IMG/VR virus record: IMGVR_UViG_3300025107_000128
Coordinates: 1 to 20,329 of that record
Direction: 5' to 3' (one strand)
Length of the DNA: 20,329 nucleotides
From: a virus
Of this stretch, positions 1,132 to 20,271 are shown piece by piece (the stretch's first letter is position 1; every line of letters begins with the position of its first letter). Under the pieces are notes generated by a model, which saw nothing but the letters and a program-made list of their open reading frames with translations, made no database searches and was not told the origin of the DNA. Position numbers and translations under genes: made by a program.

Positions 1132-1231
1132 GTGTTTCAGCTGCAGAACAAAACCGTGACTCTCCGGATGATACTTTTTTTGTGACTTGCTCTGGCAAGA
1201 TTGTGACACATCGATATTAGTTTTGCGTGAC
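1132..1231 (+). repeat. Modular dispersed repeat, copy A
   Basis: Begins with GTGTTTCAGC and a near-dyad TTCAGCTGCAGAA (1136-1148). Four GTGAC-headed modules follow, at 1156 (GTGACTCTCCGGATG), 1182 (GTGACTTGCTCTGGCAAG), 1203 (GTGACACATCGAT) and 1227. Modules 1 and 3 recur in copy B at 10620 in reversed order. The repeat fills the gap between vapD and the stop codon of the converging minus-strand gene. Function unknown: terminator, protein-binding array or recombination point are all possible. Confidence 0.75.
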
Positions 1232-2050
1232 TTAATAAGCAACTTCTGACAACTTTTGAAAAAAAACATTAAGCGTAATTCCACCTTGATCATTGTATCT
1301 TGCTTGGTCAAATTTTCTATTTGATGAACCGTGTAATTTATATAACTCTTTAATATCGTTTACCGCTAAAGTATTTTTCATAACTTTTATAGCATCTTCT
1401 TTTTTAACAGACCCTTTGTAAGAAACTTTCGTTTGAGATGGATTATCTATATTTGTAGGTATTATTTCTATTGTCACGGTTTTAAAATCAGTATATAGAA
1501 ATGTTTGATAAACTGTGTCAATAAAAGTTCTGTGTATATCTGCTTTTATCCACTCAGACTCATCACTGGAATGATATTTAATATATAAAACTACACTATT
1601 ATCGGATATAGTTTTGATATCGTAATTACCTCCCCATTGCTCCATAACATCTGATACATTATTGAGTTTATTGATTGTTACAAGTGGTTCTTCTCTTGGC
1701 AACTCTAATTTTTTATTACACCATTGTATAACTTCACTAAAATATAGGTCTTCATTTTTTGTTCTTGTAAATTCATCCATACAGTTTTTATAACTGTCTT
1801 TTAGTTTTTCATCCCATTTGTTTGATTTTATAAAAACCTCACTTAGCAAAATTTGTGTTTTTTCATCTTGCACTTTATAATTTTTAAGAGTCATTTTCTC
1901 TATGTCAATTTTTTCTTTTTTATGACTCGTTGGCTCTATCAACTCTTTTTTAACAGGTGTTTGTTGCTCTTGAGGCAGTAAGCTTCCCAATATTCCAAGA
2001 GCAAAAAAGCCTACAACTAAATACATCAACCATTTTTTTAACTTAGCCAT
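1232..2050 (-). CDS. Membrane-anchored hypothetical protein (accessory cassette 1)
   Basis: A 272-residue protein I do not recognise. It starts MAKLKK, followed by one hydrophobic segment at about residues 7-25, then a long charged region (many Lys and Glu) and a probably folded C-terminal domain containing WGGNYDIK and the ending GGITLNVFFQK. It is probably a signal-anchored protein with the bulk outside the membrane. The ATG at 2050 is preferred over 2068 because AAGGGA precedes it at good spacing. A -10 like TATAAT on the minus strand (complement of 2080-2085) would give a short leader. It runs against the tail operon and its stop codon touches repeat copy A. Position and orientation fit a phage moron, for example an immunity or exclusion factor; that role is only inferred. 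Confidence 0.75.
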   Translation of the reverse strand: MAKLKKWLMYLVVGFFALGILGSLLPQEQQTPVKKELIEPTSHKKEKIDIEKMTLKNYKVQDEKTQILLSEVFIKSNKWDEKLKDSYKNCMDEFTRTKNEDLYFSEVIQWCNKKLELPREEPLVTINKLNNVSDVMEQWGGNYDIKTISDNSVVLYIKYHSSDESEWIKADIHRTFIDTVYQTFLYTDFKTVTIEIIPTNIDNPSQTKVSYKGSVKKEDAIKVMKNTLAVNDIKELYKLHGSSNRKFDQARYNDQGGITLNVFFQKLSEVAY

Positions 2051-2091
2051 AACATTCCCTTGTACCATATATTTATCAGATTATAACAAAA

Positions 2092-2129
2092 AAACCACAT
2101 TGAATAATCCACCCAACATTTAATAAAAT
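2092..2129 (+). promoter_or_regulatory. Putative late promoter 1
   Basis: The motif AAACCACATTGA at 2092-2103, followed by WTAAT and an AT-rich -10 like TAAAAT at 2124-2129, lies 68 bases ahead of the first gene of the tail unit. The same 12-mer lies 65 bases ahead of the tape measure gene at 12722. The shared sequence and spacing suggest a common activator site; its protein is unknown. Confidence 0.5.
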
Positions 2130-2159
2130 TTATCTTCAAAATCAAAATTTAGGTTCATA

Positions 2160-2513
2160 ATGTCAGAAAGAATTTTTGAAAAAACGGTTGATGTCTATTT
2201 TCAGTACGGTGTACTTGGAGTAACCATTGTGTTGCTGATGCTAATCTCAAGCGTTTTGTTGTTCCAAATCCTCAAAGATAAAAAAAGTGATGAGCAACTT
2301 TCTGATGCTCTTCAAAAAACTACAGACAATCAAGAGAAATTCGTTTTGATGTATCAAGAAAGTCAAAAACAGCATAAAGAGATAGTTGGAATTTTAAATG
2401 AGACTTTAGAGATTGAGAGAGCAAATACCAAAGAGTGCTATATAGGCGTAGCCAACAAAATAGATAAAATGCACTTGGGTCAAGAGCGTTTATTAGACTT
2501 GCTCAAGAAGTAA
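2160..2513 (+). CDS. Small membrane protein with coiled coil, holin-like
   Basis: A 117-residue protein with a single transmembrane segment at about residues 16-38 (GVTIVLLMLISSVLLF), followed by a charged, heptad-rich helix up to the end. This topology resembles small one-span phage holins of the BhlA/UviB kind, but no diagnostic motif is visible. It is the first gene of late unit 1 and ends three bases before gene V. R-pyocin and P2 clusters also place a holin near V, which supports a lysis role. The lytic enzyme and lipoprotein are encoded far downstream at 18541-19320. Alternative: an inner-membrane accessory factor for tail assembly. Confidence 0.6.
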   Translation: MSERIFEKTVDVYFQYGVLGVTIVLLMLISSVLLFQILKDKKSDEQLSDALQKTTDNQEKFVLMYQESQKQHKEIVGILNETLEIERANTKECYIGVANKIDKMHLGQERLLDLLKK

Positions 2514-2516
2514 CAG

Positions 2517-3035
2517 TTGATACAGTACGGCAAGATAACTGAATTTAGATACACAACCGACAAAGCAGGTAAAAAGCTTGAAGTAAAAGTTAGTGTTGAT
2601 GAGAGAGTTACAAATTGGCTTCCTGTTAAGACTCAAGCATCCTCATTTTTAACGATACATACTCCAGTAAGAATAAATGATCAAGTTATAGTTTTCAATC
2701 CTTTTGGAAACAATGAAGATGGATTTGTAGATAGAAACCTAACTTATAAAGATATTCCACTTCCCGACAAAGCAGACGAAAATACTCTTGTTTTTATTTT
2801 TGAAGATGAAACAGTTTTTACACACAACACAAAAACTAAAAAAATTGATTTAAAAACTCCGTGTGATCTAACACTTGAGGCAAACATTTTAACCATCAAA
2901 GCCGCTCATACAAAATTTATAGGCGGCAAAATCTCTCATGATGGTATAGATATCTCAAAAACTCATAATCATCCTCAAAACGCAGGTAATCATTACGGTG
3001 GCGGTACAAATACTTCCGCACCGAACGGACTATAA
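2517..3035 (+). CDS. V: Baseplate assembly protein V (spike)
   Basis: A 172-residue homolog of P2 gpV, the trimeric central spike that pierces the outer membrane. It has an OB-fold-like N-terminal part and a beta-helical C-terminal half rich in short strands (TKKIDLKTPCDLTLEANILTI, a stretch typical of spike stems). It ends in a Gly/Asn-rich tip with H150-N-H152 in THNHPQ, the His-x-His motif that coordinates iron at the spike apex in the P2 family. The start codon is TTG at 2517, six bases after AAGAAG; there is no internal Met to serve instead. It follows the holin-like gene by three bases and is followed at once by W. Confidence 0.88.
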   Translation: MIQYGKITEFRYTTDKAGKKLEVKVSVDERVTNWLPVKTQASSFLTIHTPVRINDQVIVFNPFGNNEDGFVDRNLTYKDIPLPDKADENTLVFIFEDETVFTHNTKTKKIDLKTPCDLTLEANILTIKAAHTKFIGGKISHDGIDISKTHNHPQNAGNHYGGGTNTSAPNGL

Positions 3036-3036
3036 A

Positions 3037-3366
3037 ATGATAGAAATTACGTATAGCACTTTATCATCTAAACTCGACGGATATGCAGTTACTGCAGAGG
3101 ATAGTTTTGTAGATGCACTGACAACTTTAAAAGGAAGCGTGATAGGAAATCCGGAGTATGGAACTATCTTGCCAAAGCTAAAGCACAAACCGTTTAACAA
3201 CTCTTGGATCATAGACTTTAAAAGATGTTTAAAAGATGCTTGTAAACATGATCCGAGATTAGAGTTTAAAAGTGCCATTATTGATGATAGCAATGTAGCT
3301 GAGGGCAGTATATCTTTTATAGTAAATTTTGGATACTACACGCTAGAAGGTGTCGTAAATGTATAA
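3037..3366 (+). CDS. W: Baseplate wedge protein W (gp25-like)
   Basis: A 109-residue member of the gpW/gp25 family, the wedge protein that joins the sheath to the baseplate. The family signature is visible in VIGNPEYGTILPKL, followed by FNNSWIIDFKR. The ATG at 3037 is one base after the V stop codon and is preferred over the longer in-frame ATG at 2998, which would lie inside V. It overlaps J by eight bases, so translation of the two is probably coupled. Confidence 0.87.
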   Translation: MIEITYSTLSSKLDGYAVTAEDSFVDALTTLKGSVIGNPEYGTILPKLKHKPFNNSWIIDFKRCLKDACKHDPRLEFKSAIIDDSNVAEGSISFIVNFGYYTLEGVVNV

Positions 3367-4465
3367 CGATTTAGAAAAAAAACTCTCTCTTCTACAAGAA
3401 CCTACAGCTTTTGGGATAAAAACTTTTAATGAGCTTTTGCACGAGAATGTTACACTAGCCAAAGAGATACTCGGTAGTGAGTGGCTTCCTCTTGAGTCAG
3501 ACCCATATATGAAAAAACTAAGAGTTTTGACACTAAGACAGATCCACAATCAAGCCGACAAAAAAGAGACGGTTAAACAGCTTTTAGTAACGACTGCTAC
3601 AGGTGTTGCTTTGGATCATCTTGGTAGTTCGGTCAGTATCTTTAGAGATAAAGGCGAGTACCCATACACGAACTTTGAATTTAAACTCTTAGCTCCGTCA
3701 CATGAAGATTTAACGATACCTGCAGGATTGATATTAAATAGTAAAGACGATAAATACAAAACTCACACCGTTAATAGCATTCTCATAAAAGCAGGTAGTT
3801 TGAGTGTTATCGTAAGAGCGGAACTAGAAGAGTATGTTACACAAAGCGATATCAAAACCGAACATTTAGTTACAGAGCTGACTTTTGCAGTAGATATCAA
3901 ACAACTTGATATTTTTAAAAACGGTGCGGATGCCGAAAGTGATGATAGATATAGACTTAGGATCATCGCCTCTAACGATAAACATTCAACTGCAGGCAGT
4001 GTCGAAGCTTATAAATATTTTGCATATAGTGCAGACAGTAGGATAAGCGATATCTCCATTCCCGATGATAATGAGCCGCTGGATGTAAATATCTATCTCG
4101 CCTCTTTTGATATCGTCGATGATGTGATGATAGACAAAGTGTATCAAGCTTGTAATGCAAAATATACCAGACCTCTTGGCGACAATTTAACTGTAGCACC
4201 TGCAGAGATAGTGTATGTTGATTTGAGTGCGACCATAGAACTGTTTGATTTGTTGAAACAGGTTGAGACAGACAATAAAATAAAAGCGAACTTCAAAGAC
4301 TCTTTTTTTATAGGTCAAAATTTTGTCAAAAGTGATTTTATACGAAAGTGCCACATAGACGGTGTTTATAAAGTAGATAGCGATTTTAACGACATAGAAG
4401 TTTCAAATAAACAGGTCATAAAGATAGCTTTTTTTGATTTTACATACAAGCAGGCTAAACTATGA
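3359..4465 (+). CDS. J: Baseplate assembly protein J
   Basis: A 368-residue homolog of P2 gpJ, a major baseplate wedge component related to T4 gp6. The most diagnostic stretch is the central GADAESDDRYRLRI followed by STAGSVEAYKYFA and SRISDISI, which matches the family core (GADxESDDxxRxRI, AGpxxAYxxxA, I.D..v). Length is close to the usual one. It overlaps W at its start and the next gene by four bases (ATGA at 4462), as expected for a stoichiometric baseplate operon. Confidence 0.92.
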   Translation: MYNDLEKKLSLLQEPTAFGIKTFNELLHENVTLAKEILGSEWLPLESDPYMKKLRVLTLRQIHNQADKKETVKQLLVTTATGVALDHLGSSVSIFRDKGEYPYTNFEFKLLAPSHEDLTIPAGLILNSKDDKYKTHTVNSILIKAGSLSVIVRAELEEYVTQSDIKTEHLVTELTFAVDIKQLDIFKNGADAESDDRYRLRIIASNDKHSTAGSVEAYKYFAYSADSRISDISIPDDNEPLDVNIYLASFDIVDDVMIDKVYQACNAKYTRPLGDNLTVAPAEIVYVDLSATIELFDLLKQVETDNKIKANFKDSFFIGQNFVKSDFIRKCHIDGVYKVDSDFNDIEVSNKQVIKIAFFDFTYKQAKL

Positions 4466-5424
4466 ATCTGTTGCCAAACAACTCAACATTGGCAGACCAG
4501 CAGTTCGCATCATTATTCGACTCTAAAACAACTCTCTCTTTTAAAGAATTGTATGTAGATCCTCTAAGTTGCAACAGTTCACTTTTAGAACATATAGCAC
4601 TTTTAAAAGGTGCAAATATTGAAAATATGCTTGAGAGTGAAGCAAGATTATATCTAAGCACATTTACCAAAAAGTCAGTTGGAACCGTAGGTGCAGTTGA
4701 GGATGCCATAAATGTATGTTTTGATGATGCAAAACTTGTAGAGTGGTTTGAAGATAAAGAAAATCTAAAAAGAGGTATGTTTAATGTAGATGTAAATCTG
4801 AAAAACGACACATCACTGATTTACGATGATAGACTCTTTTCTCTCTCTACAAGATTGATAAACAATGCAAAAAATGTTAGAAGCAAATTAGATGCTTTTA
4901 CTCTCAAAATCCAATCAGCAGGACATGTTGGTTACACATCGGCTTTGGTGCAAGATATCAATTTAAAAAATGATTTTGAATTCAAGGACGAAGCTTCCGT
5001 AGATTTGTTTCTGCTCTCAGCATCAATCTCAAATATTGCTTTAACAAATGAATTAAAAACACACATGTCAATATGTGCTTTTGAAATTTCACACGGTGCA
5101 TCTGTAGCCGTAGAACTAGAAAATGATGCATATCAAAATCTACAAAGTGATATAGATTTATTTTTACAAACGGCATCAGTCTCAAACATTGCTTTAACAA
5201 ATGAGTTAAAAACACACATTTCAATATGTGCTTTTGAAATTTCACACGGTGCATCTGTAGCCGTAGAACTAGAAAATGATGCGTATCAAAATTTACAAAG
5301 TGAGATAAATATAAATACAAAATTCGGAGGTGTGATGGATGTAAATCTTGACAATGAACTCATCTTTAAAAATGAGGCAAATGTAAATTTAAATATAAGA
5401 GGAGGAGTTGCATGGGTGTTTTAA
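4462..5424 (+). CDS. I: Tail protein I with duplicated beta-repeat extension
   Basis: A 320-residue protein. Residues 1 to about 110 resemble P2 gpI, which joins fibres to the baseplate (leading LLPNNST, ACIDIC helices, then VEDAINVCFDDAKLVEWFED). P2 gpI is only about 180 residues. Here the remainder is built from recurring motifs of the type (V/I)NLKND..F.DEA.V.L near residues 110, 165 and 295, and it includes an almost exact 51-residue tandem duplication (residues 180-230 and 231-281). The predicted strand-rich repeats suggest an elongated shaft or extra adhesive arm. It overlaps J (ATGA) and the next gene by 13 bases. Confidence 0.78.
   Translation: MNLLPNNSTLADQQFASLFDSKTTLSFKELYVDPLSCNSSLLEHIALLKGANIENMLESEARLYLSTFTKKSVGTVGAVEDAINVCFDDAKLVEWFEDKENLKRGMFNVDVNLKNDTSLIYDDRLFSLSTRLINNAKNVRSKLDAFTLKIQSAGHVGYTSALVQDINLKNDFEFKDEASVDLFLLSASISNIALTNELKTHMSICAFEISHGASVAVELENDAYQNLQSDIDLFLQTASVSNIALTNELKTHISICAFEISHGASVAVELENDAYQNLQSEININTKFGGVMDVNLDNELIFKNEANVNLNIRGGVAWVF
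4999..5304 (+). repeat. Two-unit tandem repeat, 153-nt period, inside gene I
   Basis: Unit 1 is 4999-5151 and unit 2 is 5152-5304. The units are nearly identical at DNA level for their last ~110 bases, including third codon positions, so the duplication is recent or kept uniform by recombination. Each unit encodes 51 residues containing SNIALTNELKTH and ISHGASVAVELENDAYQNL. Confidence 0.92.
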
Positions 5425-5882
5425 TGGCAGTGCCAAATAGTGAGGGCGTTGAACTACTAAAAAAAGAGTTGTTTGAAAAAATAACTAAATTCGCACTTGC
5501 CGATGAAAACGGCGAGATCTACTTTACCGACACGGTGCATTCGATTTATTTTGATAGCGACGGAGTACTTACGGTTTCTGCATTGATACCAAAAGAAGAG
5601 CATTTTACAGTATGGAACAAATGGGTAAAACTTTTAAGCGATGAAGATAAGGTTATCGCTGACATAGAAACGCCTGCTATTCAGTTTGTAAAAGGTGTAG
5701 GTGGAGAGCAGACCGTAAAACTTACGGTTGGCGGTAAGGCTGGAGAGGTGGTATTTAAAAAAGATGAATACCTAACACTTGGGGAGATGAACGGTTTGTA
5801 TATCAGTGCTATCGAAGCATTAACTACAAAAGTATTTCAACTTGAAAATAAATTAATAAGAAGAGGAATTTTAGATGTCTAA
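5412..5882 (+). CDS. Tail fibre N-terminal/adapter-like protein
   Basis: A 156-residue protein starting at ATG 5412, just after AGGAGGAG (5399-5406). It sits between gene I and the large fibre gene and overlaps both (13 and 8 bases). Residues 20-130 contain strand-rich sequence with ITKFALADENGEIYFTD and ADIETPAIQFVKG, reminiscent of the baseplate-proximal part of phage tail fibres (gpH-like). The C-terminal ~35 residues are helical and would suit joining to the coiled coil of the next protein. Probably it connects the fibre to the baseplate; the exact family was not recognised. Confidence 0.5.
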   Translation: MGVLMAVPNSEGVELLKKELFEKITKFALADENGEIYFTDTVHSIYFDSDGVLTVSALIPKEEHFTVWNKWVKLLSDEDKVIADIETPAIQFVKGVGGEQTVKLTVGGKAGEVVFKKDEYLTLGEMNGLYISAIEALTTKVFQLENKLIRRGILDV

Positions 5883-7398
5883 GACGTTAGAAAATTTAAT
5901 AGAGCAAGCAACGGAACTTTTAAAAAGATATGACGGTGCTGTTCTTTTACTAGAAAAAAAAGCTGAGGATTATTCGGTTAGGTTGGCACATGAAACTGAT
6001 GACAGCATCGCACTACTTAAAAAAGAGATAGCTATATTGGATGTTGATGAAACGATCAATATTCTCAGATCTGTGTCAAATAAAAATATCGAAGCATTAA
6101 CGGTTAAAAGTCAAGAGATAACTGCTGAGATGGAACAAAAGTTACAAAACTTAGACATAGAGCAGGTTATCGCAGATTTTAAAACTGAAGCGGATGCAAT
6201 AGTAAAAAGTATTAAAGATGAAGTTATTACAACATCTCAAAATAATATGACTAATTTTACAATATTGAGTTCTAAAAATATTAAACTCAATCGTGATTCG
6301 AGTTGTGTACAAGGTAGCTCAACTTACAGTTCACTAATCAAGGTTGCTAAAAATCGTTTCGCGATTGCTAAACTTTTATTTGGTAGTGGTCGCACGGAAG
6401 CTACTCTCACACCTTTTACTATTGACGGAAACGGTAAATTATCGGTTTCAGAACCTGCTCAAATGTTCTTAAACATTTCAGGTGCAGGTATATCAACAAC
6501 ACAATTCTTTAGTGCTGACAACACGGGTAAACTGTTTGCTTATGGACATAACATGTATCCGGGTCAAAGTTCACATCAATTTGGTTATTTCTATGGTCGT
6601 GTTAATGAAAACAACAATGTTGTAGATGTTGGTTATTCAACAGATCTAAACTACCATCAAAACAATGGACAGTATGGCGGAATGTTAGATGGAGACGGTA
6701 ACGGATTTTATGCGGATGGAAGCTCTTACAATCAGTCTGATTCAAAACAGAGAAGTATCCATATTAACTATAGTGGAGACACTCCGAGCTTAAAAGTTCA
6801 TAACCCAAGTTCAGACACTTCAACAGGTTATGCATCCCACTTCATAGGTCAAGAAGGTGTGTCAAATGCAGGTATAACAGGTATCGTTCATTATAGAACT
6901 AGTGCCAATGCTTACAAAGAGAGAGCATTTAACAGTGATGGATCTAGCGCTGAATATGAGATCTCAGGTTGGGACAGTGAGATGGTAGCCTTTGTTCTAT
7001 CTAATGGCAAAGTACTAAATATTACAAGAGGTTCAGCAGGTTATATTGCTTGTGTATATGCCGCTTACAACAACAGAACCATAGTGAACGATATAAACTT
7101 TGATCTTAATCATTTTTATCCTTATTGGTCAAATGCAAATATCACAAATGTTGCTAAAGATACTTGGCTAGTTTTTAACTATCAAATACGAGCGATATTT
7201 ACGATGCACATCAATCCTGATACTTACGAAATGACTATTATTGATGGAATTGATAGTGGTTTGTTGACAGGAAATAACTCTCAACTTTCTGTAAAAGTTG
7301 GTGGTGCAAATAATGAATTCTTAATTGTTTCTCAGCATCAAGAGAATAATTTTCAAACAGTTAAAGTTATTAAAAATCCATTAAAGATGAAGAAGTAG
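5875..7398 (+). CDS. Tail fibre / receptor-binding protein
   Basis: A 507-residue protein. Residues 1 to about 125 are a long, highly charged coiled coil (LLKRYDGAVLLLEKKAEDY through QEITAEMEQKLQNL), the usual trimerising stalk. The rest is rich in Gly, Ser, Asn, Thr and aromatic residues, with short repeated strand-turn units such as FSADNTGKLFAYG, YGRVNENNNVVDVG and VLSNGKVLNITRG, resembling blades of a beta-propeller or a fibre head. It should decide which cell surface is bound. No collagen-like or intramolecular chaperone motif is evident. It overlaps the preceding gene by eight bases. Fibre heads are the fastest-changing part of such clusters, so weak database similarity is expected. Confidence 0.72.
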   Translation: MSKTLENLIEQATELLKRYDGAVLLLEKKAEDYSVRLAHETDDSIALLKKEIAILDVDETINILRSVSNKNIEALTVKSQEITAEMEQKLQNLDIEQVIADFKTEADAIVKSIKDEVITTSQNNMTNFTILSSKNIKLNRDSSCVQGSSTYSSLIKVAKNRFAIAKLLFGSGRTEATLTPFTIDGNGKLSVSEPAQMFLNISGAGISTTQFFSADNTGKLFAYGHNMYPGQSSHQFGYFYGRVNENNNVVDVGYSTDLNYHQNNGQYGGMLDGDGNGFYADGSSYNQSDSKQRSIHINYSGDTPSLKVHNPSSDTSTGYASHFIGQEGVSNAGITGIVHYRTSANAYKERAFNSDGSSAEYEISGWDSEMVAFVLSNGKVLNITRGSAGYIACVYAAYNNRTIVNDINFDLNHFYPYWSNANITNVAKDTWLVFNYQIRAIFTMHINPDTYEMTIIDGIDSGLLTGNNSQLSVKVGGANNEFLIVSQHQENNFQTVKVIKNPLKMKK

Positions 7399-7407
7399 GG
7401 ACATAAA

Positions 7408-7977: not shown

Positions 7978-7986
7978 GGAGTACTT

Positions 7987-10198: not shown

Positions 10199-10549
10199 AT
10201 GGAAAAAGTCAAATCGTTTAACGAAAAAGAGCAAAGAGAAGCAGTACATGCGGCTCTTACGGCAGAAGGTGTAGAGGTTACAAAAACTCTAGTAGATAAG
10301 ATTATGGACAAACAATCTGAATTAGCTTTTAATGCACTTGTTGCAGGTTCAAGCATTAAATTCAACGGTTTGGGTACTTTAGAGGTTCGCCCACATACAG
10401 AGAGAAAGTACAAGCTTCCAAACGGAACTATGGGAACTGCTCCAGCAGGTTTTCATGTAGAATTTGTTGAGTCAGACAAACTTCTTGAAGCTATGAACGC
10501 TCCTGTAGAAAACAATACGGTTCCTGCAACAGTTCCTGCAAAAGTTTAA
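10199..10549 (+). CDS. HU/IHF-like DNA-binding protein
   Basis: A 116-residue HU-family protein. The beta-arm region reads SSIKFNGLGTLEVRPHTERKYKLPNGT, equivalent to the canonical F.gFGtF.v..R..R.g.NP, and is followed by FHVEFVESDKLLEAMN, the usual closing strand and helix. About 20 Ala/Pro/Val/Thr-rich residues extend the C-terminus. AAAGGA at 10187-10192 gives the start. HU-like genes are uncommon within tail operons; here it lies between the chaperone and the point where a minus-strand cassette separates the tape measure gene. It may shape DNA at the phage promoters or repeats, or act on late transcription; this is inference. Confidence 0.82.
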   Translation: MEKVKSFNEKEQREAVHAALTAEGVEVTKTLVDKIMDKQSELAFNALVAGSSIKFNGLGTLEVRPHTERKYKLPNGTMGTAPAGFHVEFVESDKLLEAMNAPVENNTVPATVPAKV

Positions 10550-10619: not shown

Positions 10620-10684
10620 GTGTTTCAGCAGCTGAACAAAAATGTGACACATCGATTTAGATTTGGTGTGACTCTCCGGATGGA
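10620..10684 (+). repeat. Modular dispersed repeat, copy B
   Basis: GTGTTTCAGC with the perfect dyad TTCAGC-A-GCTGAA (10624-10636), then GTGACACATCGAT at 10644 and GTGACTCTCCGGATG at 10668, 24 bases apart. The distance from dyad to first GTGAC is 20 bases, as in copy A. The module order is the reverse of copy A. It ends one base before the stop codon of the converging secreted-protein gene. Confidence 0.78.
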
Positions 10685-11032
10685 TTAATTATAATTCATC
10701 ATGGTTTTACAAACTGACGCACTATCTAAAATTTTCCATGTTTTTAAATCTTCAACATAGCTTTCATCAATACATATAGATAGATTAGTAGAATATAACT
10801 TTAGCATTTCAAGTTGGAAGTTACCTGCTTGTTTCATAGTGTTTATAATATTTGGGCAGTATGTACTGATATAGTTTGCTGAAAAACTAAGTTTTTCAAG
10901 TAAACTTGATTTTTTCCATTCCGTCATTGTATGTTTATAAAGTTCTCCATGCTGATACCATTGTTTCTCTACTGCATTTATATTAGTTGTCGCAAATAAT
11001 AGAGTTATAAAGATAATTGATTTTTTAATCAT
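10685..11032 (-). CDS. Small secreted (periplasmic) hypothetical protein
   Basis: A 115-residue protein with a clear signal peptide: a charged start MIKK, hydrophobic residues 5-14 and a probable cleavage after NINA (about residue 20). The mature part has three cysteines (in STYC, SICI and SVCK) and is mostly helical. No family was recognised. It starts after AAGGAA with good spacing. It is the last gene of the minus-strand cassette, and its stop codon abuts repeat copy B, exactly as the membrane-anchored gene at 1232 abuts copy A. A role in immunity or surface exclusion is possible but not shown. Confidence 0.7.
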   Translation of the reverse strand: MIKKSIIFITLLFATTNINAVEKQWYQHGELYKHTMTEWKKSSLLEKLSFSANYISTYCPNIINTMKQAGNFQLEMLKLYSTNLSICIDESYVEDLKTWKILDSASVCKTMMNYN

Positions 11033-11046
11033 TGGAAATTCCTTTT

Positions 11047-11880
11047 TTACGATTTTATCGTATAGGAACTTTTAAACTCTTCAAATTGAGATTTATTATT
11101 TTCAGTATATCCATATTTATCATGGAACGATTTATGACATTTTTTACACAATGTAACACCATTGGATAAATTGAACCTTTCCTCCTTATGGGAGGTATAA
11201 TTTTTAAAATGGTGAGCATTTAAATTTCCACCCGACGAACAGAAGCAGATTTGACAAGTGTAATTGTCTCTTTTAAAAACAGATGTTCTCCACTTTATAT
11301 TTTGCTCTGTTTTTCTTTGTTTAACTCTCTCTTCTTCAGTTTTTTCTGGGTTATAAAAAATGCTATTCTTGCCACTAAATCTTTCTGAAAAACCTTTATT
11401 AGTACATTCTCTAGAACAATAATTAAATTCATTTTTGTTGATTCGAAAATTATTCCTATAAAAAAGTTTATCACAAGAAGAGCATGTAATATCTTTCCCT
11501 GTTTTATATTTTTCAATTTTTGAGAAATATAAACATTCTTTAGAGCAGTAATGTTTTTCCGTTCTACTGATTGAGCTAGGATGTTTCTCTATCTTTTTGT
11601 TACAGTTACTACAATATACTATAACTTTTTTATAATTTGGACTTTCAATTCCTTTCTTTTGAACATAGTGTTTCAAATAACATTCCCTACTACAATAGAT
11701 CTTACTCAATGCTTCAGCTCTACTAATCAAAAAAGTGTTTTTACATCCATGACATGTGAAGTTTATTTCTATCCTCTGTGAAATACCTCTACAAGTGGTT
11801 GAACAAAATTTAGATTTATTGAACCCCATATATTCATTGTTGCAATGTTCACAAATTTTAGATACTTTTTTTTGAGACAT
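11047..11880 (-). CDS. HNH endonuclease with four zinc-finger-like repeats
   Basis: A 277-residue protein. Residues 10-159 hold four Cys quartets (C10/C13/C26/C30, C43/C46/C63/C67, C89/C92/C112/C116, C133/C136/C155/C159), each of the form CxxC...(Y/F)CSxxC. The C-terminus is an HNH nuclease: C209-x2-C212, the catalytic AHH at 222-224, N240, C245-x2-C248 and H249, with the motif LSNGVTLCKKCHKSFH. Such finger-plus-HNH proteins are typical phage homing or cassette nucleases; the fingers likely recognise DNA. GAGG precedes the start. It overlaps no neighbour, lies 9 bases after the Rha-like gene and is probably co-transcribed with it. Confidence 0.87.
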   Translation of the reverse strand: MSQKKVSKICEHCNNEYMGFNKSKFCSTTCRGISQRIEINFTCHGCKNTFLISRAEALSKIYCSRECYLKHYVQKKGIESPNYKKVIVYCSNCNKKIEKHPSSISRTEKHYCSKECLYFSKIEKYKTGKDITCSSCDKLFYRNNFRINKNEFNYCSRECTNKGFSERFSGKNSIFYNPEKTEEERVKQRKTEQNIKWRTSVFKRDNYTCQICFCSSGGNLNAHHFKNYTSHKEERFNLSNGVTLCKKCHKSFHDKYGYTENNKSQFEEFKSSYTIKS

Positions 11881-11889
11881 AACAGAACC

Positions 11890-12243
11890 TCATATCAAGT
11901 TTGTTAAACTCTTGATATGTTTTTTTAACTCTTTACTTTGTTTCTTTTTTAGTAGCTTTTTTTGAACATGAAAAAAGTCATTTAGCAGGGTTCTTTTGAT
12001 GTAGTTTAACTTTGGTATATCGTTGTAGTCAGTTAGAAGTCTGTAAGTTTGTCTCTCATTGAGATACATACCGTAAGTGTCATTTGTCTTATCTATGATG
12101 ATATTTCCGTAGTGTTTGAGTGTATCTTCATTGTCAGATAGTGACATCTTAAATTCATTTATATCTAACTCTAGCAACTTAGCAAGTGAGTAAGCAGATA
12201 TAACAGCAGTTTTGTCAATAACTTGGATTAGTGAGTTTTTCAT
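11890..12243 (-). CDS. Rha-like phage regulatory protein (tentative)
   Basis: A 117-residue protein. The segment YLNERQTYRLLTDYNDIPKL followed by IKRTLLNDFFHVQK resembles the Rha/antirepressor helical module (YL.E.Q...L......V..FK..LV.AF...). The N-terminal part SAYSLAKLLELDINEF looks like a short DNA-binding or winged-helix region. In phages such proteins act as regulators or antirepressors. It is the second gene of the minus-strand cassette, after an XRE gene. Identification rests on the short motif only. Confidence 0.5.
   Translation of the reverse strand: MKNSLIQVIDKTAVISAYSLAKLLELDINEFKMSLSDNEDTLKHYGNIIIDKTNDTYGMYLNERQTYRLLTDYNDIPKLNYIKRTLLNDFFHVQKKLLKKKQSKELKKHIKSLTNLI
11891..11926. 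terminator. Hairpin with T-tract at the Rha-like/HNH junction
   Basis: Perfect 9-bp stem CATATCAAG / CTTGATATG with an 11-base loop. On the plus strand it is followed by seven Ts, so it could stop plus-strand transcripts. On the minus strand it contains the stop codon of the Rha-like gene and lies right before the GAGG of the nuclease gene, where it could also limit nuclease translation. Confidence 0.5.
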
Positions 12244-12291
12244 AATTTTACCTTTTTGATGTTTTATAGGTAAAAGTATATTATTGCAAAA

Positions 12292-12322
12292 CTTAAAAAC
12301 TAATCAATGAGTAGTTTTTAAG
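12292..12322. terminator. Hairpin between XRE gene and Rha-like gene
   Basis: Perfect 11-bp AT-rich stem CTTAAAAACTA / TAGTTTTTAAG with a 9-base loop, overlapping the XRE stop codon at 12318. On the minus strand it is followed by TTTTGC. It may attenuate transcription between the two genes. Confidence 0.5.
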
Positions 12323-12530
12323 AGTGTTTTTCTTTTAGTTCTTGATTAAACTTTCTGATTTCTCTTATAAAGTCTACAGATTTATAAAAATATTTTGGTA
12401 TGCCTCTAGTGCCATTGCTCCATTGATTTACAGTTCCTGTACTTACTCCAATCTTCTCAGCTAACTCTATTTGAGTACATTCAAACTCTTTGCAAATATC
12501 TTTGATGATTTTGTTCTGTTCTTCTTTCAT
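12318..12530 (-). CDS. Small XRE/Cro-like regulator
   Basis: A 70-residue helix-turn-helix protein: ECTQIELAEKIGVSTGTVNQWSNGTRGIP is a textbook XRE helix 2-turn-recognition helix segment (residues ~18-45). It has no further domain, like Cro or plasmid antitoxin regulators. AAGG lies seven bases before the ATG. It is the first gene of the minus-strand cassette and is divergent from the tape measure gene. The 191-base gap between them holds a 12-bp AT-rich palindrome (12601-12634) that could be its operator. Confidence 0.8.
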   Translation of the reverse strand: MKEEQNKIIKDICKEFECTQIELAEKIGVSTGTVNQWSNGTRGIPKYFYKSVDFIREIRKFNQELKEKHS

Positions 12531-12634: not shown

Positions 12635-12656
12635 AAATTAATATAAGCTTGTAATG

Positions 12657-12697
12657 AAACCACATTGATTAATTAACTCCTAATATGTAAATATAAA
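12657..12697 (+). promoter_or_regulatory. Putative late promoter 2
   Basis: The same AAACCACATTGA as at 2092, again followed by WTAAT, with a -10 like TATAAA at 12692, 65 bases ahead of the tape measure start. This would give the second half of the tail cluster its own late promoter. Confidence 0.5.
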
Positions 12698-12721
12698 TAC
12701 AGATAAATAAAAAGGAATATT

Positions 12722-15295: not shown

Positions 15296-15309
15296 TATAA
15301 AGGAAAAAA

Positions 15310-16056
15310 ATGAAAAAAATAAGTGTGCACAGTTTACAAGCTGTAAGAAGTTTCGCGGAGAACCATAGTGTTCATAAATTGAGTTTAAAAAAAAGCAATA
15401 AGAATGCTAATGCGAGTTTTAAAATAAGAACTAGTTCTAAGCCTTTTCCTGAAACTTTTGCTTATTATGAAGCAGAGTTGTTTGATGGAGAATATTCTCT
15501 TTTAAAAGGTTTTGTTGTAACTGTATTACAAAAATGTTTTACAAAAAAATCTATTAAATTAAGCATTGAAGAGTTAAACAAAGTGATTGATTTTATTGAA
15601 ACAAATATGTATCAAGATGTTTGTTTAGACCAACCGATGTTAACTGATAAGATGAGAGATGGATTTGATTTTGTTGTAGGTCAGATTATTGTTTTGGGTT
15701 GCAGTGTTGAAGACGGTGGGAATAATGAATTTGAGTTACCTGCAATTGTTACAAAAATTCACCCAAGAGATATTAATGAACACTATCAATATGACTTCAT
15801 ATTTCCTTTGAGAGGAGCTTGTGAATTTGTTAGTTGGGGAAAAGACGAAAAAAGATATTTGTGGCGTTTTCATCGTAAAGAAGTAGTAAGACCTCCGACT
15901 TGGTTTTTAGATGGATTTTTAAAAGAGACATCTAATTGTTTTACAGTTGCGGATTGTGATTTGGTGTTGGACAACCTATTTTATATAGATAAGAATGTAG
16001 ATAAAAAAGAAGATATGAAACTAATTTATCCATTTAGATATGAAGGAAAAAAATGA
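15310..16056 (+). CDS. Hypothetical protein between T and the nuclease
   Basis: A 248-residue soluble protein that I do not recognise. It has a Lys/Ser-rich N-terminus (about residues 1-45) followed by a folded domain containing ELNKVIDFIETNMY, GFDFVVGQIIVLGCSVED and PRDINEHYQYDFIFPLRG, and a Trp-rich part WRFHRKEVVRPPTWFLDGF. No signal peptide is visible. It overlaps the nuclease gene by four bases (ATGA), and the two genes share almost the same ribosome-binding and start sequence. Translational coupling suggests they work together; it could be a partner or an inhibitor of the nuclease. P2 has no gene in this place. Confidence 0.65.
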   Translation: MKKISVHSLQAVRSFAENHSVHKLSLKKSNKNANASFKIRTSSKPFPETFAYYEAELFDGEYSLLKGFVVTVLQKCFTKKSIKLSIEELNKVIDFIETNMYQDVCLDQPMLTDKMRDGFDFVVGQIIVLGCSVEDGGNNEFELPAIVTKIHPRDINEHYQYDFIFPLRGACEFVSWGKDEKRYLWRFHRKEVVRPPTWFLDGFLKETSNCFTVADCDLVLDNLFYIDKNVDKKEDMKLIYPFRYEGKK

Positions 16057-16592
16057 AAAAAATAATATTGGTTCTAGCCTTGGTGGCTAGTTTGTTTGCT
16101 TTAGACAATTGGGACGAAGCGAAGGTTAAATATGTGCTTGACGGCGATACTTTGATGTTGCAAAAAGGAGATAAAGAGCCTTTTAAAGTTCGCTTGATAG
16201 CGATTGATACTTTTGAAACAAAAGTAAATGAGAGAGCATCTTTGCAGTTGCAAACTCTAAAGGATATACATCCCAATAATCCGCAACATAAAGATAGATA
16301 TGTTCATTCATTCAACAAAGTTATGGAACTTGGAAACAAAGCTAAGGATTATGTACAAAATAAGTATTTAGGCAAAGTGGTCAAATATCGCAGTTACGGT
16401 TTTGATAAATACGATAGAGAGCTTGTTTGGATTGAAGTTTTGAACTTCTCTTTAGTTCGTAATGGTCTGGCACTCTACTATCCAAACAACCAAATATCGC
16501 CTCAAGAGAAAGCTTATCTTTTGGATCTAAGTCGTGAAGCGAATCTTGAAAAAAGAGGGATTTACAACAGGTTAGGCAATGATTTCAAATAA
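16053..16592 (+). CDS. Exported staphylococcal-type (SNase) nuclease
   Basis: A 179-residue thermonuclease-family enzyme that cuts DNA and RNA with calcium. Residues 1-17 form a signal peptide (MKKIILVLALVASLFAL), so the enzyme should reach the periplasm. All residues corresponding to the S. aureus active site are present: Asp32 in DGDTL, Arg47, Asp52 and Glu55 in RLIAIDTFE, and Arg122 in KYDRELVW. The C-terminus SREANLEKRGIY is also typical. It is embedded in the tail operon, overlapping the gene before it and gene U after it (14 bases). This is not part of the P2 or R-pyocin gene order. It may degrade DNA of lysed or competing cells, exclude incoming phage DNA, or be a cargo. Confidence 0.9.
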   Translation: MKKIILVLALVASLFALDNWDEAKVKYVLDGDTLMLQKGDKEPFKVRLIAIDTFETKVNERASLQLQTLKDIHPNNPQHKDRYVHSFNKVMELGNKAKDYVQNKYLGKVVKYRSYGFDKYDRELVWIEVLNFSLVRNGLALYYPNNQISPQEKAYLLDLSREANLEKRGIYNRLGNDFK

Positions 16593-17004
16593 ACTTATAA
16601 GCGGTCTTGTAAGTAGTCTCATAAGCGGTCTTAGCATGGGCAAGCTTGGAGACTTTGAATTTTATATGTCAAAAAACGAATATAAAAAGATATCTCAAAC
16701 ATTAACTGCAGAGCATGGCGTTTTTACTCCAATTAAAGGGCAAAAACGCTTTAGTGATTCAGGCGGCTACACTCGTGAACTCTCTCTTGAGGGTGTTTTA
16801 GTAGTTCAACCGCTTAATGCTCTTAAGAGTTTGGAAGATTATCTGATTGCTCGAAAGCCTATACGATTTACTACGCTTAACCATGATTTTGAAGTTTTGA
16901 TATCTTCTTTAAACATCACTCAAGAGAAGTTTTTAGATGACGGGAACTACACCGTGCAAACTTACAATCTTTCTTTAAAAGAGGTTTATGATGAGCTTGT
17001 ATAA
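16579..17004 (+). CDS. U: Tail protein U
   Basis: A 141-residue homolog of P2 gpU. The family pattern is visible from residue 20 on (MGKLGDFEFYMSKNEYKKI, then KGQKRFSDSGGYTRELSLEGVL). The first 19 residues are an extra hydrophobic segment containing the duplicated ISGL. A second possible start is ATG 16636, where homologs usually begin, but the ATG at 16579 has an AGG upstream and is coupled to the nuclease. It overlaps gene X by 17 bases. Confidence 0.82.
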   Translation: MISNKLISGLVSSLISGLSMGKLGDFEFYMSKNEYKKISQTLTAEHGVFTPIKGQKRFSDSGGYTRELSLEGVLVVQPLNALKSLEDYLIARKPIRFTTLNHDFEVLISSLNITQEKFLDDGNYTVQTYNLSLKEVYDELV

Positions 17005-17215
17005 GTGTAGTGATGGAGATAGAATTGACTTGATAGTGCTGAATCGTTACGGCGATTTGAAACACCTGAACAATGTTGTAGCCGCAAATAAACAGCTTTT
17101 TGGCAAGCCTTTGATTTTGCAAAACGGAACTACTATCGAACTCCCGACTTTTGAAACTCAGCAGCGGAATAAAAGTGTGACACAACTGGCTAAGACAAGA
17201 GAGCCGTTATGGTAG
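16988..17215 (+). CDS. X: Tail protein X (LysM-like)
   Basis: A 75-residue homolog of P2 gpX, which contains a LysM-like fold. Signature: YKCSDGDRIDLIVLNRYGDL, then NNVVAANKQL and the ending GTTIELPTFE. The start may be 16988 or the ATG directly after it (16991). It overlaps U and D on both sides, the usual U-X-D arrangement. Confidence 0.87.
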   Translation: MMSLYKCSDGDRIDLIVLNRYGDLKHLNNVVAANKQLFGKPLILQNGTTIELPTFETQQRNKSVTQLAKTREPLW

Positions 17216-18144
17216 TTGATACTATAGAACTTATGATTGATGGCGAAGAGGTGGCGATTGAAAATGTACTTAGCCTCTCATTTTCTGATGAAGTCGGTAT
17301 AAAATCAGACAAAGTTACCATTAGCGTTTTGCCAAATTTTCCAAAACCAAAACCAAGTGCAAAGGTAGAACTCGTCCTCAAAAGTTTAAAAAACGATACG
17401 GTAGTAGAAGAGTTAAACTGCGGTTTGTTTCATGTACAAACTGTAACTCGTACAAATAATAAAGCTTTGTCAATTACGGCTACAGGTGTTGAGTTTAACG
17501 AAAAACAAAAAGACAAGATATCCCATCATTATGTCGATACAAAACTCTCAAGCATCGTCAAAATTGTCGCTGATAGATTGGGTCATAAAGTAAAGTTTCA
17601 AACTACAGACACACAAATAAAATCACTCAACCAAACAAATGAGAGCGATATCAATTTTCTCGAGAGAATATCTAAAGACTACAATGTACTTTTTTCAATC
17701 AAAAATGACTTTGTGTATTTTGTAAACAAAGATGATAAATCTTTACCTGTAACCAAAATTGATATATCCAAATGTAGCAGCTCTTCCTTGAAGCACTCTA
17801 CAAAAACTTACTACAACTCATGCGAAGCTTCATGGCATGACTTAGATGGTGGTAAAACCATAAAAGTTACTGTTGGCGATGGTACACCTGTTATAAAAAT
17901 CAAAAGTGCATATCAAGATGAGGAGGATGCGAAAGCAAAAGCAAAAGCAAAACTAGACTCCATCAACAAAGGCACGGTTAAAGGATCTCTTTCTTTAAAA
18001 GGATGTGCCGTTTATGCAGGTACTAAAGTGGATTTGTTTAACACATACGATGGTGAGGATGACGGTTTGTTTAGTGTAGAGAGTTGCAATCATAGCTATA
18101 ACCGTAGTGATGGTTGGAACACTTCAATTGAAATAGAAAATTAA
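17209..18144 (+). CDS. D: Late control protein D / tail hub
   Basis: A 311-residue homolog of P2 gpD, the hub protein to which the spike V attaches. Recognised from its place after X and from GLFHVQTVTRTNNKALSITATG, NESDINFLERISKDYNVLFS and the C-terminal GTKVDLFNTYDGEDDGLFSVES region. The name 'late control' is historical; it is a structural baseplate hub. An Ala/Lys dipeptide repeat (KAKAKAKAKL) lies at about residue 241. It overlaps X by seven bases. Confidence 0.9.
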   Translation: MVVDTIELMIDGEEVAIENVLSLSFSDEVGIKSDKVTISVLPNFPKPKPSAKVELVLKSLKNDTVVEELNCGLFHVQTVTRTNNKALSITATGVEFNEKQKDKISHHYVDTKLSSIVKIVADRLGHKVKFQTTDTQIKSLNQTNESDINFLERISKDYNVLFSIKNDFVYFVNKDDKSLPVTKIDISKCSSSSLKHSTKTYYNSCEASWHDLDGGKTIKVTVGDGTPVIKIKSAYQDEEDAKAKAKAKLDSINKGTVKGSLSLKGCAVYAGTKVDLFNTYDGEDDGLFSVESCNHSYNRSDGWNTSIEIEN

Positions 18145-18157
18145 AGGAGTTGAAAAG

Positions 18158-18544
18158 TTGAAAATAGGTTTTAGAGAAAAAAAAGTTGTATTGTCTGTCT
18201 CTCAAAGTGGAGATATTCGAACAACTATGTCAGAGTTGACTTACTATACAGAGGTTGTAGAACCTCAGTTGATTTTAGTGCCTATCGGTTTTGATACTGA
18301 CTTGGGAAGTATTCCCCGAATATTTCAGAGTTTTATACCAAAAGATGGGATAGTCATTTTTGCTTATATTTTGCACGATTATCTTTACAAAATGGGATTA
18401 TTTACAAGAACTCAAACCGACAATATACTTGATGAAGCGATGAAATCTCAAGGAGCTAGTTTGGTTCATAGAAAAGTAGTCTTAAGCGGTTTAAGAGTCG
18501 GCGGTTGGGTGTCTTGGAATAAACATAGAAAAGCAGAAAAGTGA
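18158..18544 (+). CDS. DUF1353 family protein
   Basis: A 128-residue DUF1353 protein, a family common in phages next to lysis genes; biochemical role unknown. The family motifs GFDTDLGSIPR (residues 44-54) and LHDYLY (72-77) are clear, and RVGGWVSWNKHR ends the fold. The start is TTG at 18158, eight bases after AGGAG. It overlaps the lipoprotein gene by four bases. Its position between D and the muramidase suggests a role in lysis or envelope passage. Confidence 0.85.
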   Translation: MKIGFREKKVVLSVSQSGDIRTTMSELTYYTEVVEPQLILVPIGFDTDLGSIPRIFQSFIPKDGIVIFAYILHDYLYKMGLFTRTQTDNILDEAMKSQGASLVHRKVVLSGLRVGGWVSWNKHRKAEK

Positions 18545-18801
18545 AAATGAAAATTTTACTTATTGTATTTCTGGCGTTGGCGTTGTTATTGTTTAGCGGT
18601 TGTAGTACTGCATACGGTACAGGTAAGGTAGTGTACAAAGGTGCAAGAACGGCATATATAGAATTGGAGCTTGAGAATGAGAATTTAGAGAAGATAGACA
18701 ACATACTTGTTATTTACGACAAGGTTAGAGGTTCGGTTGATGAAGAGGTGCAAAAGCAAAAAAAGCAGGTTGCGAGTACTTTAAAAGTACAAGAGCCTTA
18801 A
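18541..18801 (+). CDS. Small lipoprotein, spanin-like
   Basis: An 86-residue protein with a lipoprotein signal peptide: hydrophobic residues 5-18 and a lipobox-like LFSGC with the lipid-accepting Cys21 (when counted from the GTG at 18541; an ATG two codons later is the alternative). The mature part has a short GKVVYKGARTAYIELELEN stretch and a charged helix. Placed between DUF1353 and the muramidase, it could be an outer-membrane spanin (o-spanin) for the last step of lysis. No inner-membrane spanin partner is evident unless the 2160 gene serves. Confidence 0.65.
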   Translation: MKMKILLIVFLALALLLFSGCSTAYGTGKVVYKGARTAYIELELENENLEKIDNILVIYDKVRGSVDEEVQKQKKQVASTLKVQEP

Positions 18802-18819
18802 TAAAATGTTGGTGGTAAA

Positions 18820-19320
18820 ATGAAAAAATTTCATAAAGCGTTTGAGACAGTTATCGGTATTGAAGGTGGGTATGTTTTTGACAAGGACGACAAAGGCGGT
18901 GAGACCAAATTCGGCATATCAAAACGAAGTTATCCCGATTTGGATATCAAAAATCTTTCTTTAGAAGAGGCTCGAGAGATTTACCTCACGGATTTTTGGA
19001 ATACAGAACGAGGAAATCTCGAAATGTTGCCTGAAAGTGTAGCAATAGAAGTTTTTGATACCGGTGTCAATATGGGCATAGAGATGGGTAGAAAGATTTT
19101 GCAAAGGTCTTTAAACTTGTTAAATAGGATTGAAACATTGTATCCAGATTTGAAAGTTGACGGTTGGTTAGGCGATACAACACTTAAAGCACTTGAGAAA
19201 GTAGAGACAAGTAAACTGCTCAAAGTGCTTAACGGTCTTCAGTTCATGAAATACTACAGCATAGTAGAGCATGATCACAGTCAAGAAAAGTTTTTTGCAG
19301 GCTGGATTGAAAGGGTCTGA
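18820..19320 (+). CDS. GH108 muramidase (phage lysozyme)
   Basis: A 166-residue peptidoglycan hydrolase of glycoside hydrolase family 108. The N-terminal GIEGGYVFDKDDKGGETKFGIS contains the catalytic Glu15 and the family's EGGyv.d..D.GG.T..GI signature; ANMGxx-like DTGVNMGIEMGRKILQRSLN and VDGWLGDTTLKAL match the C-terminal peptidoglycan-binding part. No signal peptide is seen, so release needs a holin, probably the 2160 product. GGTGG precedes the ATG. It is the last gene of late unit 2. Confidence 0.92.
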   Translation: MKKFHKAFETVIGIEGGYVFDKDDKGGETKFGISKRSYPDLDIKNLSLEEAREIYLTDFWNTERGNLEMLPESVAIEVFDTGVNMGIEMGRKILQRSLNLLNRIETLYPDLKVDGWLGDTTLKALEKVETSKLLKVLNGLQFMKYYSIVEHDHSQEKFFAGWIERV

Positions 19321-19339
19321 AAATACTTAACAAATAGCA

Positions 19340-19371
19340 CAGAGAGTGATACTTCGAACTCCCACTCTCTG
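19340..19371 (+). terminator. Hairpin after the muramidase gene
   Basis: Perfect 9-bp stem CAGAGAGTG / CACTCTCTG with a 14-base loop, 20 bases after the stop codon. No T-tract follows, so it is a weak or factor-assisted terminator. Confidence 0.55.
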
Positions 19372-19405
19372 AACTGTAATACTATCAAATACATAATTAA
19401 AATAT

Positions 19406-19422
19406 GTATAACTGAATTATAC
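19406..19422. promoter_or_regulatory. Repressor operator O4 in front of the methylase
   Basis: Perfect dyad GTATAA-CTGAA-TTATAC overlapping a -10 like TATACT (19418-19423); the ribosome binding site AGGAG follows at 19437. Same geometry as the vapD operator, 18.6 kb away. Confidence 0.75.
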
Positions 19423-19447
19423 TTAGATAGAAAAATAGGAGTTCTAT

Positions 19448-20240
19448 ATTAATACTACAACATTAAAACCGCCACACGGTTGGGTCGGTGGAAAATCAAA
19501 ACTTGCAAAGCAGATAGTCGGTCTTATACCAAATGAACATGAGTTATTTGTAGAGGTCTTTGGAGGTGCGTTAAATGTGCTATATGCTAAAGAGTTACCT
19601 GCAAGGTCAAAATATAGAGAAGTCGCAAATGACTTTAACAGCGACCTTATCAATTTGCATAGATGCATCCGCAGCAATCCGTTACTTTTACAAAAATACC
19701 TAAATGAGTTGCTTATCTCTCGAGAGCTGTTTAGCGATAATAAAATTAAGCAATATGAAACCACGAGACTTCGTAGAGAAAGCAGCATTTTATTTCTATC
19801 AGCTCCAGATGAGTTTTGGAAGCAAGGGCGATAACTTTGCTATGAGTGCCAAAAGCAGAAAACCTAAAAATATTTATAGAGATTTTACAAAATGGTCTCA
19901 GAGGCTCAAAATGGTAACTATTGAAAATATGGATTTTCAAAAACTCATAGAAAATTATGATCAAGAAGAAGCATTTTTTTACTGCGACCCTCCGTATGTC
20001 GGAACTGAGTCATATTATAAGAATAAAAAGACTTTTGATTTAAACGACCATAAAAGGCTGTATAAGACTCTAAAAGGTGTTAAGGGTAAGTTTCTACTCT
20101 CTTACAACGATTGTGAGTTTGTGAGGGGTTTATATGCCGATTTTCGTATAGTAGAGAGTGATAAGTTTGAATACACTCTCGGTAAGAATGTTCATGGCAA
20201 AAATAAATCTGTTCGGGAGCTGTTTATAACGAATTATTAA
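19448..20240 (+). pseudogene. Dam-type DNA adenine methylase (D12 class), frameshifted
   Basis: The N-terminal frame (19448-19834) has the S-adenosylmethionine-binding start KPPHGWVGGKSKLAK and ELFVEVFGGALNVLYAKE, then NDFNSDLINLHRCI. The C-terminal frame (from about 19746 to 20240) continues with FVEKAAFYFYQLQMSFGSKG and the catalytic DPPY at 19986-19997 (FYCDPPYVG). Removing one A from the A4 run at 19742-19745 would restore a single frame. No ATG, GTG or TTG fits the start; an ATT at 19448 is six bases after AGGAG. So either the gene is broken, the read has an indel, or start and frame are unusual. Similar methylases follow gene D in CJIE1-type prophages and protect phage DNA. Repressor operator O4 lies upstream. 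Confidence 0.8.
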
Positions 20241-20243
20241 AGT

Positions 20244-20271
20244 GTGTTTCAGCAGCTGAAAAATATGTGAC
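20244..20271 (+). repeat. Modular dispersed repeat, copy C (core)
   Basis: GTGTTTCAGC with the perfect dyad TTCAGC-A-GCTGAA (20248-20260) and one GTGAC at 20267, 19 bases after the dyad start. It follows the methylase stop codon by three bases. Further modules, if any, are replaced by the terminator hairpin. Confidence 0.7.

What the first reader, a model, noticed from the sequence alone, without database searches (positions are those of the whole stretch)
1132..20271. Dispersed repeat family made of shuffled GTGAC-headed modules
Three copies (1132-1231, 10620-10684, 20244-20271), all in the same orientation, begin with GTGTTTCAGC and a dyad, followed at a fixed 19-20 bases by the first GTGAC. 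Modules recur every 21-26 bases: 'GTGACTCTCCGGATG' is first in A and last in B, 'GTGACACATCGAT' third in A and first in B. Most modules contain a small palindrome (TCCGGA, ATCGAT, TTGC..GCAA). Shuffled order with helical-like spacing is unlike a normal terminator or REP element and suggests a protein-bound array or a recombination substrate.
Basis: seen in the sequence. Interest (0 to 1): 0.75.

Follow-up and report, generated by a model that had tools for sequence, protein, structure and literature searches.

The report
24-base arrays in Campylobacterota mobile elements
Short arrays of a degenerate 24-base repeat headed GTGAC are scattered over a linear, hairpin-ended, tail-encoding plasmid of Campylobacterota and over unrelated prophages of the same bacteria, even inside genes on either strand, so they probably act as DNA binding or recombination sites for a factor that is still unknown.

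Summary
Copies A (1132), B (10620) and C (20244) are arrays of one degenerate unit, GTGAC-TSANCWGS plus an A-rich tail. The modal period is 24 nt and the header is itself a unit. A fourth copy lies inside a tail gene (17153-17200). The window is part of a linear plasmid with hairpin telomeres, a telomere resolvase, ParA and its own origin. It encodes a contractile tail and lysis but no recognisable head. A relative (27,145 bp) is closed by two perfect palindromes.

Relatives keep arrays at the same places while the units change. Unrelated mobile elements carry the same unit types: a contractile phage, inoviruses and other proviruses. In a cytosine methylase, arrays fill the same linker in both orientations. 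At that site GTGAC is unchanged in 45 of 45 comparisons; other positions changed in 80 of 171. The arrays therefore act at the DNA level.

Partition, origin, terminator and RNA readings fail or weaken. Best reading: cooperative binding arrays for a factor supplied in trans. Main rival: recombination or homing junctions, because cargo genes and one module breakpoint abut the arrays. The binder was not identified.

The parts
1132..1250 (+). Array A: header unit 1132-1155, then GTGAC units at 1156, 1182, 1203 and 1227; lies between the ends of a VapD/Cas2-like gene (+) and a cargo gene (-, 1232-2068)
10620..10691 (+). Array B: header unit 10620-10643, GTGAC units at 10644 and 10668; lies after the HU-like gene; cargo genes on - start right after it
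17153..17200 (+). Array X (new): header-like unit plus one GTGAC unit, in frame in the 3' end of the tail gene gpX (16988-17215)
   Evidence: homologous arrays in G001, G005, G006, G011, G013
20244..20290 (+). Array C: header unit 20244-20266 and one GTGAC unit at 20267; starts 3 nt after the stop codon of the Dam-like methylase
20279..20310 (+). Ordinary intrinsic terminator (13-pair stem) overlapping the end of array C, so the array is not needed for termination
10685..12530 (-). Cargo block next to array B (four genes, one a zinc-ribbon HNH endonuclease 11047-11880); absent from G001, G005, G006 and G013, which keep the array
1232..2068 (-). Cargo gene whose stop codon lies inside the last unit of array A
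10199..10549 (+). HU-like DNA-binding protein gene upstream of array B; also present in array-free relatives

Best explanation
The arrays are a family of dispersed, iteron-like binding sites that act as double-stranded DNA. Each 24-bp unit has a core, GTGAC-TSANCWGS, and an A-rich spacer of about 11 bp; two to five units line up at fixed spacing so that neighbouring bound proteins can touch. They sit where the element tolerates extra sequence: between gene ends, or in flexible linkers of genes on either strand. The binder is supplied in trans and is probably host-encoded or widely shared, because array-bearing elements of different types share no evident DNA-binding gene other than the methylase, which some lack. 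The most likely use is organising or silencing the dormant element. Shown: anatomy, spacing, dispersal, constraint at the DNA level, occurrence in unrelated element types. Inferred: protein binding, cooperativity, host origin of the binder, role.
For: Arrays far above chance. Same loci and 24-nt spacing in diverged relatives while unit sequences change. In array D of the methylase, GTGAC differs in 0 of 45 pairwise comparisons and other positions in 80 of 171. The same methylase linker holds arrays antisense in the plasmids and sense in G294 and G384, so the encoded peptide cannot be the function. Unit profile GTGAC, T6, S7, A8, C10, G12, S13, A-rich 16-22. Same unit types in inovirus, provirus and phage L266. 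BLAST finds only the methylase shared with integrated elements, plus an endolysin in G088.
Against: No binding was shown and no binder identified. Units were gathered largely by GTGAC, so conservation of positions 1-5 is partly ascertained outside array D. 24 bp does not keep one helical face. Array-free relatives with similar gene content live without the arrays. Array A diverges faster than its flanks (14% against 2.5-2.9% mismatches).
Confidence: 0.45

Rival explanations
1. Module-junction substrates: the arrays are targets for recombination or homing, for example by zinc-ribbon HNH endonucleases, through which cargo genes are captured and exchanged between mobile elements. Repair copies units between arrays, which shuffles them.
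For: Opposite-strand cargo genes end within or just after the last unit: window A (1232) and B (10685), G013 A (6398) and C (21786), G005 C, L266 (5649). Array B is present without cargo in relatives, and window and G001 part completely right after it. HNH genes sit next to arrays in the window and in L266. Cargo is shared between element types: methylase, PAPS-reductase-like gene. Identical or near-identical units recur at different loci of one element (G013 H and X; TGTACAGG at three loci of G005).
Against: Unit similarity is too short for homologous recombination and no common recombinase was found. Many arrays have no cargo beside them. Another breakpoint lies about 60 bp beyond C. Convergent gene ends are tolerant sites anyway.
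Confidence: 0.25
2. Dispersed partition sites (centromere) read by the ribbon-helix-helix-like partner of ParA, as the dispersed IR sites of N15 are read by SopB.
For: The element is a linear plasmid with ParA and an RHH-like gene in one operon with the resolvase and no room for a centromere there. N15 IR sites are a precedent (PMC7205306).
Against: Same arrays in integrated inovirus and proviruses. Relatives with ParA and RHH (G008-G010, G017, G018) lack them.
Confidence: 0.1
3. A non-functional, parasitic short repeat (REP/BOX/MITE-like) that spreads among mobile elements and is tolerated in intergenic DNA and linkers.
For: Mosaic unit order, occurrence in unrelated elements, in-gene copies on both strands.
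Against: GTGAC and 24-nt register are kept in array D across diverged plasmids; in G001 the two-unit pattern is confined to the plasmid contig of a 1.8-Mb assembly; no transposase or RAYT-like gene seen nearby.
Confidence: 0.12
4. RNA-level element: transcription terminator or mRNA 3'-end stabiliser between convergent genes.
For: All three convergent junctions in the window carry an array; header units show weak stem covariation (z about 3).
Against: Folding of A and B is no better than shuffles (z +1.1 and +0.2). No Rfam match. Arrays lie inside genes, some antisense. C is followed by its own ordinary terminator.
Confidence: 0.05

Closest known systems
Stoperators of cluster A mycobacteriophages (L5, TipsytheTRex)
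   Same: Many asymmetric sites dispersed over a temperate element, in short intergenic spaces (PMC9283540)
   Different: Stoperators are single 13-mers whose orientation follows transcription; here there are tandem 24-bp units, also inside genes and in either orientation; binder unknown
Dispersed IR1-4 partition sites of phage-plasmid N15
   Same: Several centromere sites on a linear hairpin plasmid-prophage with a Par system (PMC7205306)
   Different: N15 sites are perfect inverted repeats (GTGCGACC..GGTCGCAC); ours are tandem asymmetric units and also occur in integrated elements without this Par system
Iterons of plasmid replication origins
   Same: Tandem direct repeats of about 20 bp with AT-rich parts (general knowledge)
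   Different: The element has a separate origin-like GTGTTTC iteron cluster; the arrays are dispersed and degenerate
REP/BIME, BOX and Neisseria NIME repeats
   Same: Modular mosaics of small palindromic units at gene 3' ends (general knowledge)
   Different: Fixed 24-nt register, seen in mobile elements, often inside coding DNA, no RAYT-like gene seen
Telomere phages (N15, PY54, VP882 type)
   Same: Telomere resolvase and hairpin telomeres on the carrier element
   Different: Carrier encodes a contractile tail but no recognisable head or terminase

Membership tests
Stoperator system | Site orientation follows the direction of transcription | tested here: not met
   Arrays antisense to the methylase and to the G003 primase, sense in G294, G384, gpX and helicase
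Stoperator system | Bound by the element's own repressor | not testable with these tools
   Repressor genes are present in array-free relatives too; no binding data
N15-like dispersed partition sites | Sites are inverted repeats bound by the ParB-type partner | tested here: not met
   Units are asymmetric tandem repeats
N15-like dispersed partition sites | Sites occur together with the cognate Par system | tested here: not met
   Arrays in integrated inovirus and proviruses; absent from several ParA/RHH-bearing relatives
Plasmid replication iterons | Repeats clustered at the origin beside the initiator gene | tested here: not met
   Origin-like cluster uses GTGTTTC at about 11-bp period elsewhere
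REP elements | Dispersed over the host chromosome, mobilised by a RAYT-type transposase | tested here: not met
   In G001 the two-unit pattern is only on the plasmid contig; no such gene among the ORFs examined
Intrinsic terminators | Stable RNA hairpin followed by a U tract, in non-coding DNA | tested here: not met
   Folding no better than shuffles; arrays inside genes
Telomere phage / linear plasmid (carrier element) | Telomere resolvase and palindromic hairpin telomeres | tested here: met
   ResT-TelK_cat 34.4 bits, cut-off 27; G013 closed by 104-bp perfect palindromes at both ends. The window itself holds neither; they are on overlapping or related contigs
Telomere phage / linear plasmid (carrier element) | Complete virion gene set including head and terminase | tested here: not met
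   None recognised in window, G001 or G013

The most novel reading that the evidence does not exclude
A shared DNA address code of Campylobacterota mobile elements: unrelated plasmids, inoviruses and phages carry arrays for the same trans-acting factor, which controls or exchanges their cargo as a common pool, and the unit types act as interchangeable specificity modules.
Probability: 0.25. Interest if true: 0.85.

Novelty: new variant of a known kind. Interest (0 to 1): 0.62.

Why it matters
If the arrays bind one factor, they would be a cis-element shared by otherwise unrelated mobile elements of a bacterial phylum, and a handle for finding the protein that reads them. The module breakpoint and the cargo genes next to the arrays make cargo exchange directly testable. 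The carrier, a linear hairpin-ended plasmid that seems to encode only a contractile tail, looks unusual in its own right; the one full-text search made for such an element found nothing.

Tried and rejected
Chance: rejected. Header as origin iteron: GTGTTTC iterons exist, but headers diverge (GTGTCTTAGC, GTGATTTAGC, GTGACTCAGC) while the origin keeps GTGTTTC. Partition sites: weakened by arrays in integrated elements. HU-like protein as binder: also in array-free relatives. Orientation following replication forks: the arrays to the right of the origin share one orientation and the helicase-junction array is opposite, but an array in G012 on the telomere side of the origin has the common orientation too. 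RNA structure: no signal. Periodic arrays with another core in array-free relatives: not found apart from the origin iterons. The IMG/VR scan with the header pattern gave chance matches except in the near-identical contig.

Full report
Check. The three copies are present at the stated coordinates, on the + strand, with the stated order of modules. GTGAC links of 20-27 nt number 4 in the window with a chain of 4; 500 dinucleotide-preserving shuffles gave a mean of 0.09 links, at most 2, and no chain above 3. The header GTGTTTCAGC.. is itself a unit: it precedes the first GTGAC by 24, 24 and 23 nt, not 19-20. A fourth copy lies in frame at the 3' end of the gpX tail gene, 17153-17200.

What the window is. 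It is a 20.3-kb virus record. A near-identical contig (IMG/VR 3300003343_000002) and a 27.7-kb contig of a Helicobacteraceae MAG (G001) extend it. To the right come a ribbon-helix-helix-like gene (my reading of the sequence; no Pfam match), ParA and a telomere resolvase (ResT-TelK_cat, 34.4 bits against a cut-off of 27). To the left come a DUF5906/VapE-like helicase, a DnaG-type primase and MerR/Mor-like and HTH genes. A relative, G013 (27,145 bp), ends in two perfect 104-bp palindromes, the expected read-through of hairpin telomeres. Gene content is baseplate, sheath, tube, tape measure, hub, endolysin, methylase. No capsid, portal or terminase gene was recognised; the few 'head' or 'connector' labels (head decoration, head closure, Hoc-like decoration) are weak matches in tail-gene slots. 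The element is best read as a linear plasmid that encodes a headless contractile tail. Its resolvase has no relative among 50,697 phage and 72,556 plasmid records at E 1e-5.

Arrays in relatives. With the unit scan (further places) arrays lie at conserved places: after the repressor (A), after the HU-like gene (B), in gpX (X), after the Dam-like methylase (C), in a C5-cytosine methylase (D), at the primase-helicase junction (H) and near the left telomere (G012). Spacing is 24 nt nearly everywhere. G003, whose resolvase groups with that of G002 (a 5.5-kb fragment without arrays) and away from the G001 clade, has four units inside its primase gene, antisense. Relatives G008-G010 and G014-G018 show none that look genuine. 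The unit profile from 101 distinct units in 40 arrays is GTGAC (87-99% per position), T6, S7, A8, C10 (88%), G12 (60%), S13, A-rich 16-22; units were gathered largely by GTGAC, so positions 1-5 are partly ascertained. Recurrent types at positions 9-13 are GCWGC, ACAGG, CCAGG, CCGG and TCGA.

Selection on DNA. In array D of three plasmids, GTGAC differs in 0 of 45 comparisons and the other positions in 80 of 171, although the region is coding on the other strand. In the methylase family the array fills the linker before the C-terminal zinc ribbon. It is antisense in the plasmids and sense in G294 and G384, so different peptides are encoded. This argues strongly against a peptide-level function there.

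Beyond the plasmid. A three-unit pattern in 399 genomes of the order hit 7; two of these (G052, G309) look like unrelated repeats by eye, and the reversed control hit 3. A second survey with a header-plus-unit pattern hit 6 of 397 genomes of the phylum, with no reversed-control hit. Contexts: inovirus prophages with a pIV-like secretin and a Zot-like gene, carrying the methylase (G384), small proviruses (G190, G294, G088) and, from IMG/VR, a different contractile phage (L266). G210, G067 and G403 were not typed further, though G403 resembles the G190 element. In G001 the two-unit pattern is confined to the plasmid contig. BLAST found only the methylase shared with the integrated elements, plus an endolysin match in G088; there is thus no evident common element-encoded binder, and a host factor is the inference.

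Junctions. In the window all three convergent gene junctions carry an array. Cargo genes on the opposite strand end within or just after the last unit: A/1232, B/10685, G013 6398 and 21786, L266 5649. Array B predates the window's cargo, because relatives have the array without it. Window and G001 are similar up to the end of B (HU gene 1.4% and array 7.7% mismatches) and then differ completely. This supports a role, active or passive, as module junctions. Against an exclusive role, another breakpoint lies about 60 bp beyond C.

Alternatives. Origin: a separate GTGTTTC iteron cluster flanks an AT-rich stretch next to the helicase. Partition: arrays in integrated elements and array-free ParA-bearing relatives argue against it. 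RNA: no folding signal, no Rfam hit. Stoperators: similar in dispersal, but orientation is not fixed here. Zinc-ribbon proteins (HNH or methylase) are found in most well-covered array-bearing elements and not in ten array-free ones. That relation is confounded by kinship and by arrays lying in the methylase gene; it is a lead only.

Verdict. A real, unusual repeat family, constrained at the DNA level, in unrelated mobile elements of one phylum. It works most like dispersed cooperative binding arrays, possibly also as cargo junctions. Binder and role remain inferred.

Noticed in passing
L143/L144 (G013, 1-27145); window 2160-20240; L067 4157-6354: The carrier looks like a complete linear hairpin-ended plasmid that encodes a contractile tail and lysis but no head or terminase: a tailocin-like element on a linear plasmid.
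   Followed up: partly
L126 11888-12200; L127 11897-12240; G008 left end 1001-1320; G009 570-880: Origin-like region downstream of the helicase: inverted clusters of GTGTTTC iterons at about 11-bp period flanking an AT-rich stretch.
   Followed up: partly
window 11047-11880; L266 5649-6455: HNH endonucleases with four tandem zinc-ribbon-like motifs, both next to arrays in unrelated contractile-tail elements.
   Followed up: partly
L087 18255-19409; L144 8786-9898; L301 3467-4603: PAPS-reductase-like cargo genes next to or near arrays in two different element types.
   Followed up: no
G001 and G005 contigs (L112/L113, L115/L116): TGCAGGT/ACCTGCA is strongly over-represented (24 against 2.1 expected in G005, 17 against 2.4 in G001); could be codon usage (Ala-Gly) or a motif.
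   Followed up: no
window 19577-20240: The Dam-like methylase reading frame is split in the window by a frameshift, while G001 and G005 have longer intact frames.
   Followed up: no
window 5000-5305: Tandem duplication of 153 nt (91% identical) inside a tail gene.
   Followed up: no
L297-L299 (G384:C1 1990000-2047999): Three inovirus prophages in tandem; two carry the C5 methylase with arrays, the middle one has an IS3-like transposase in its place.
   Followed up: no
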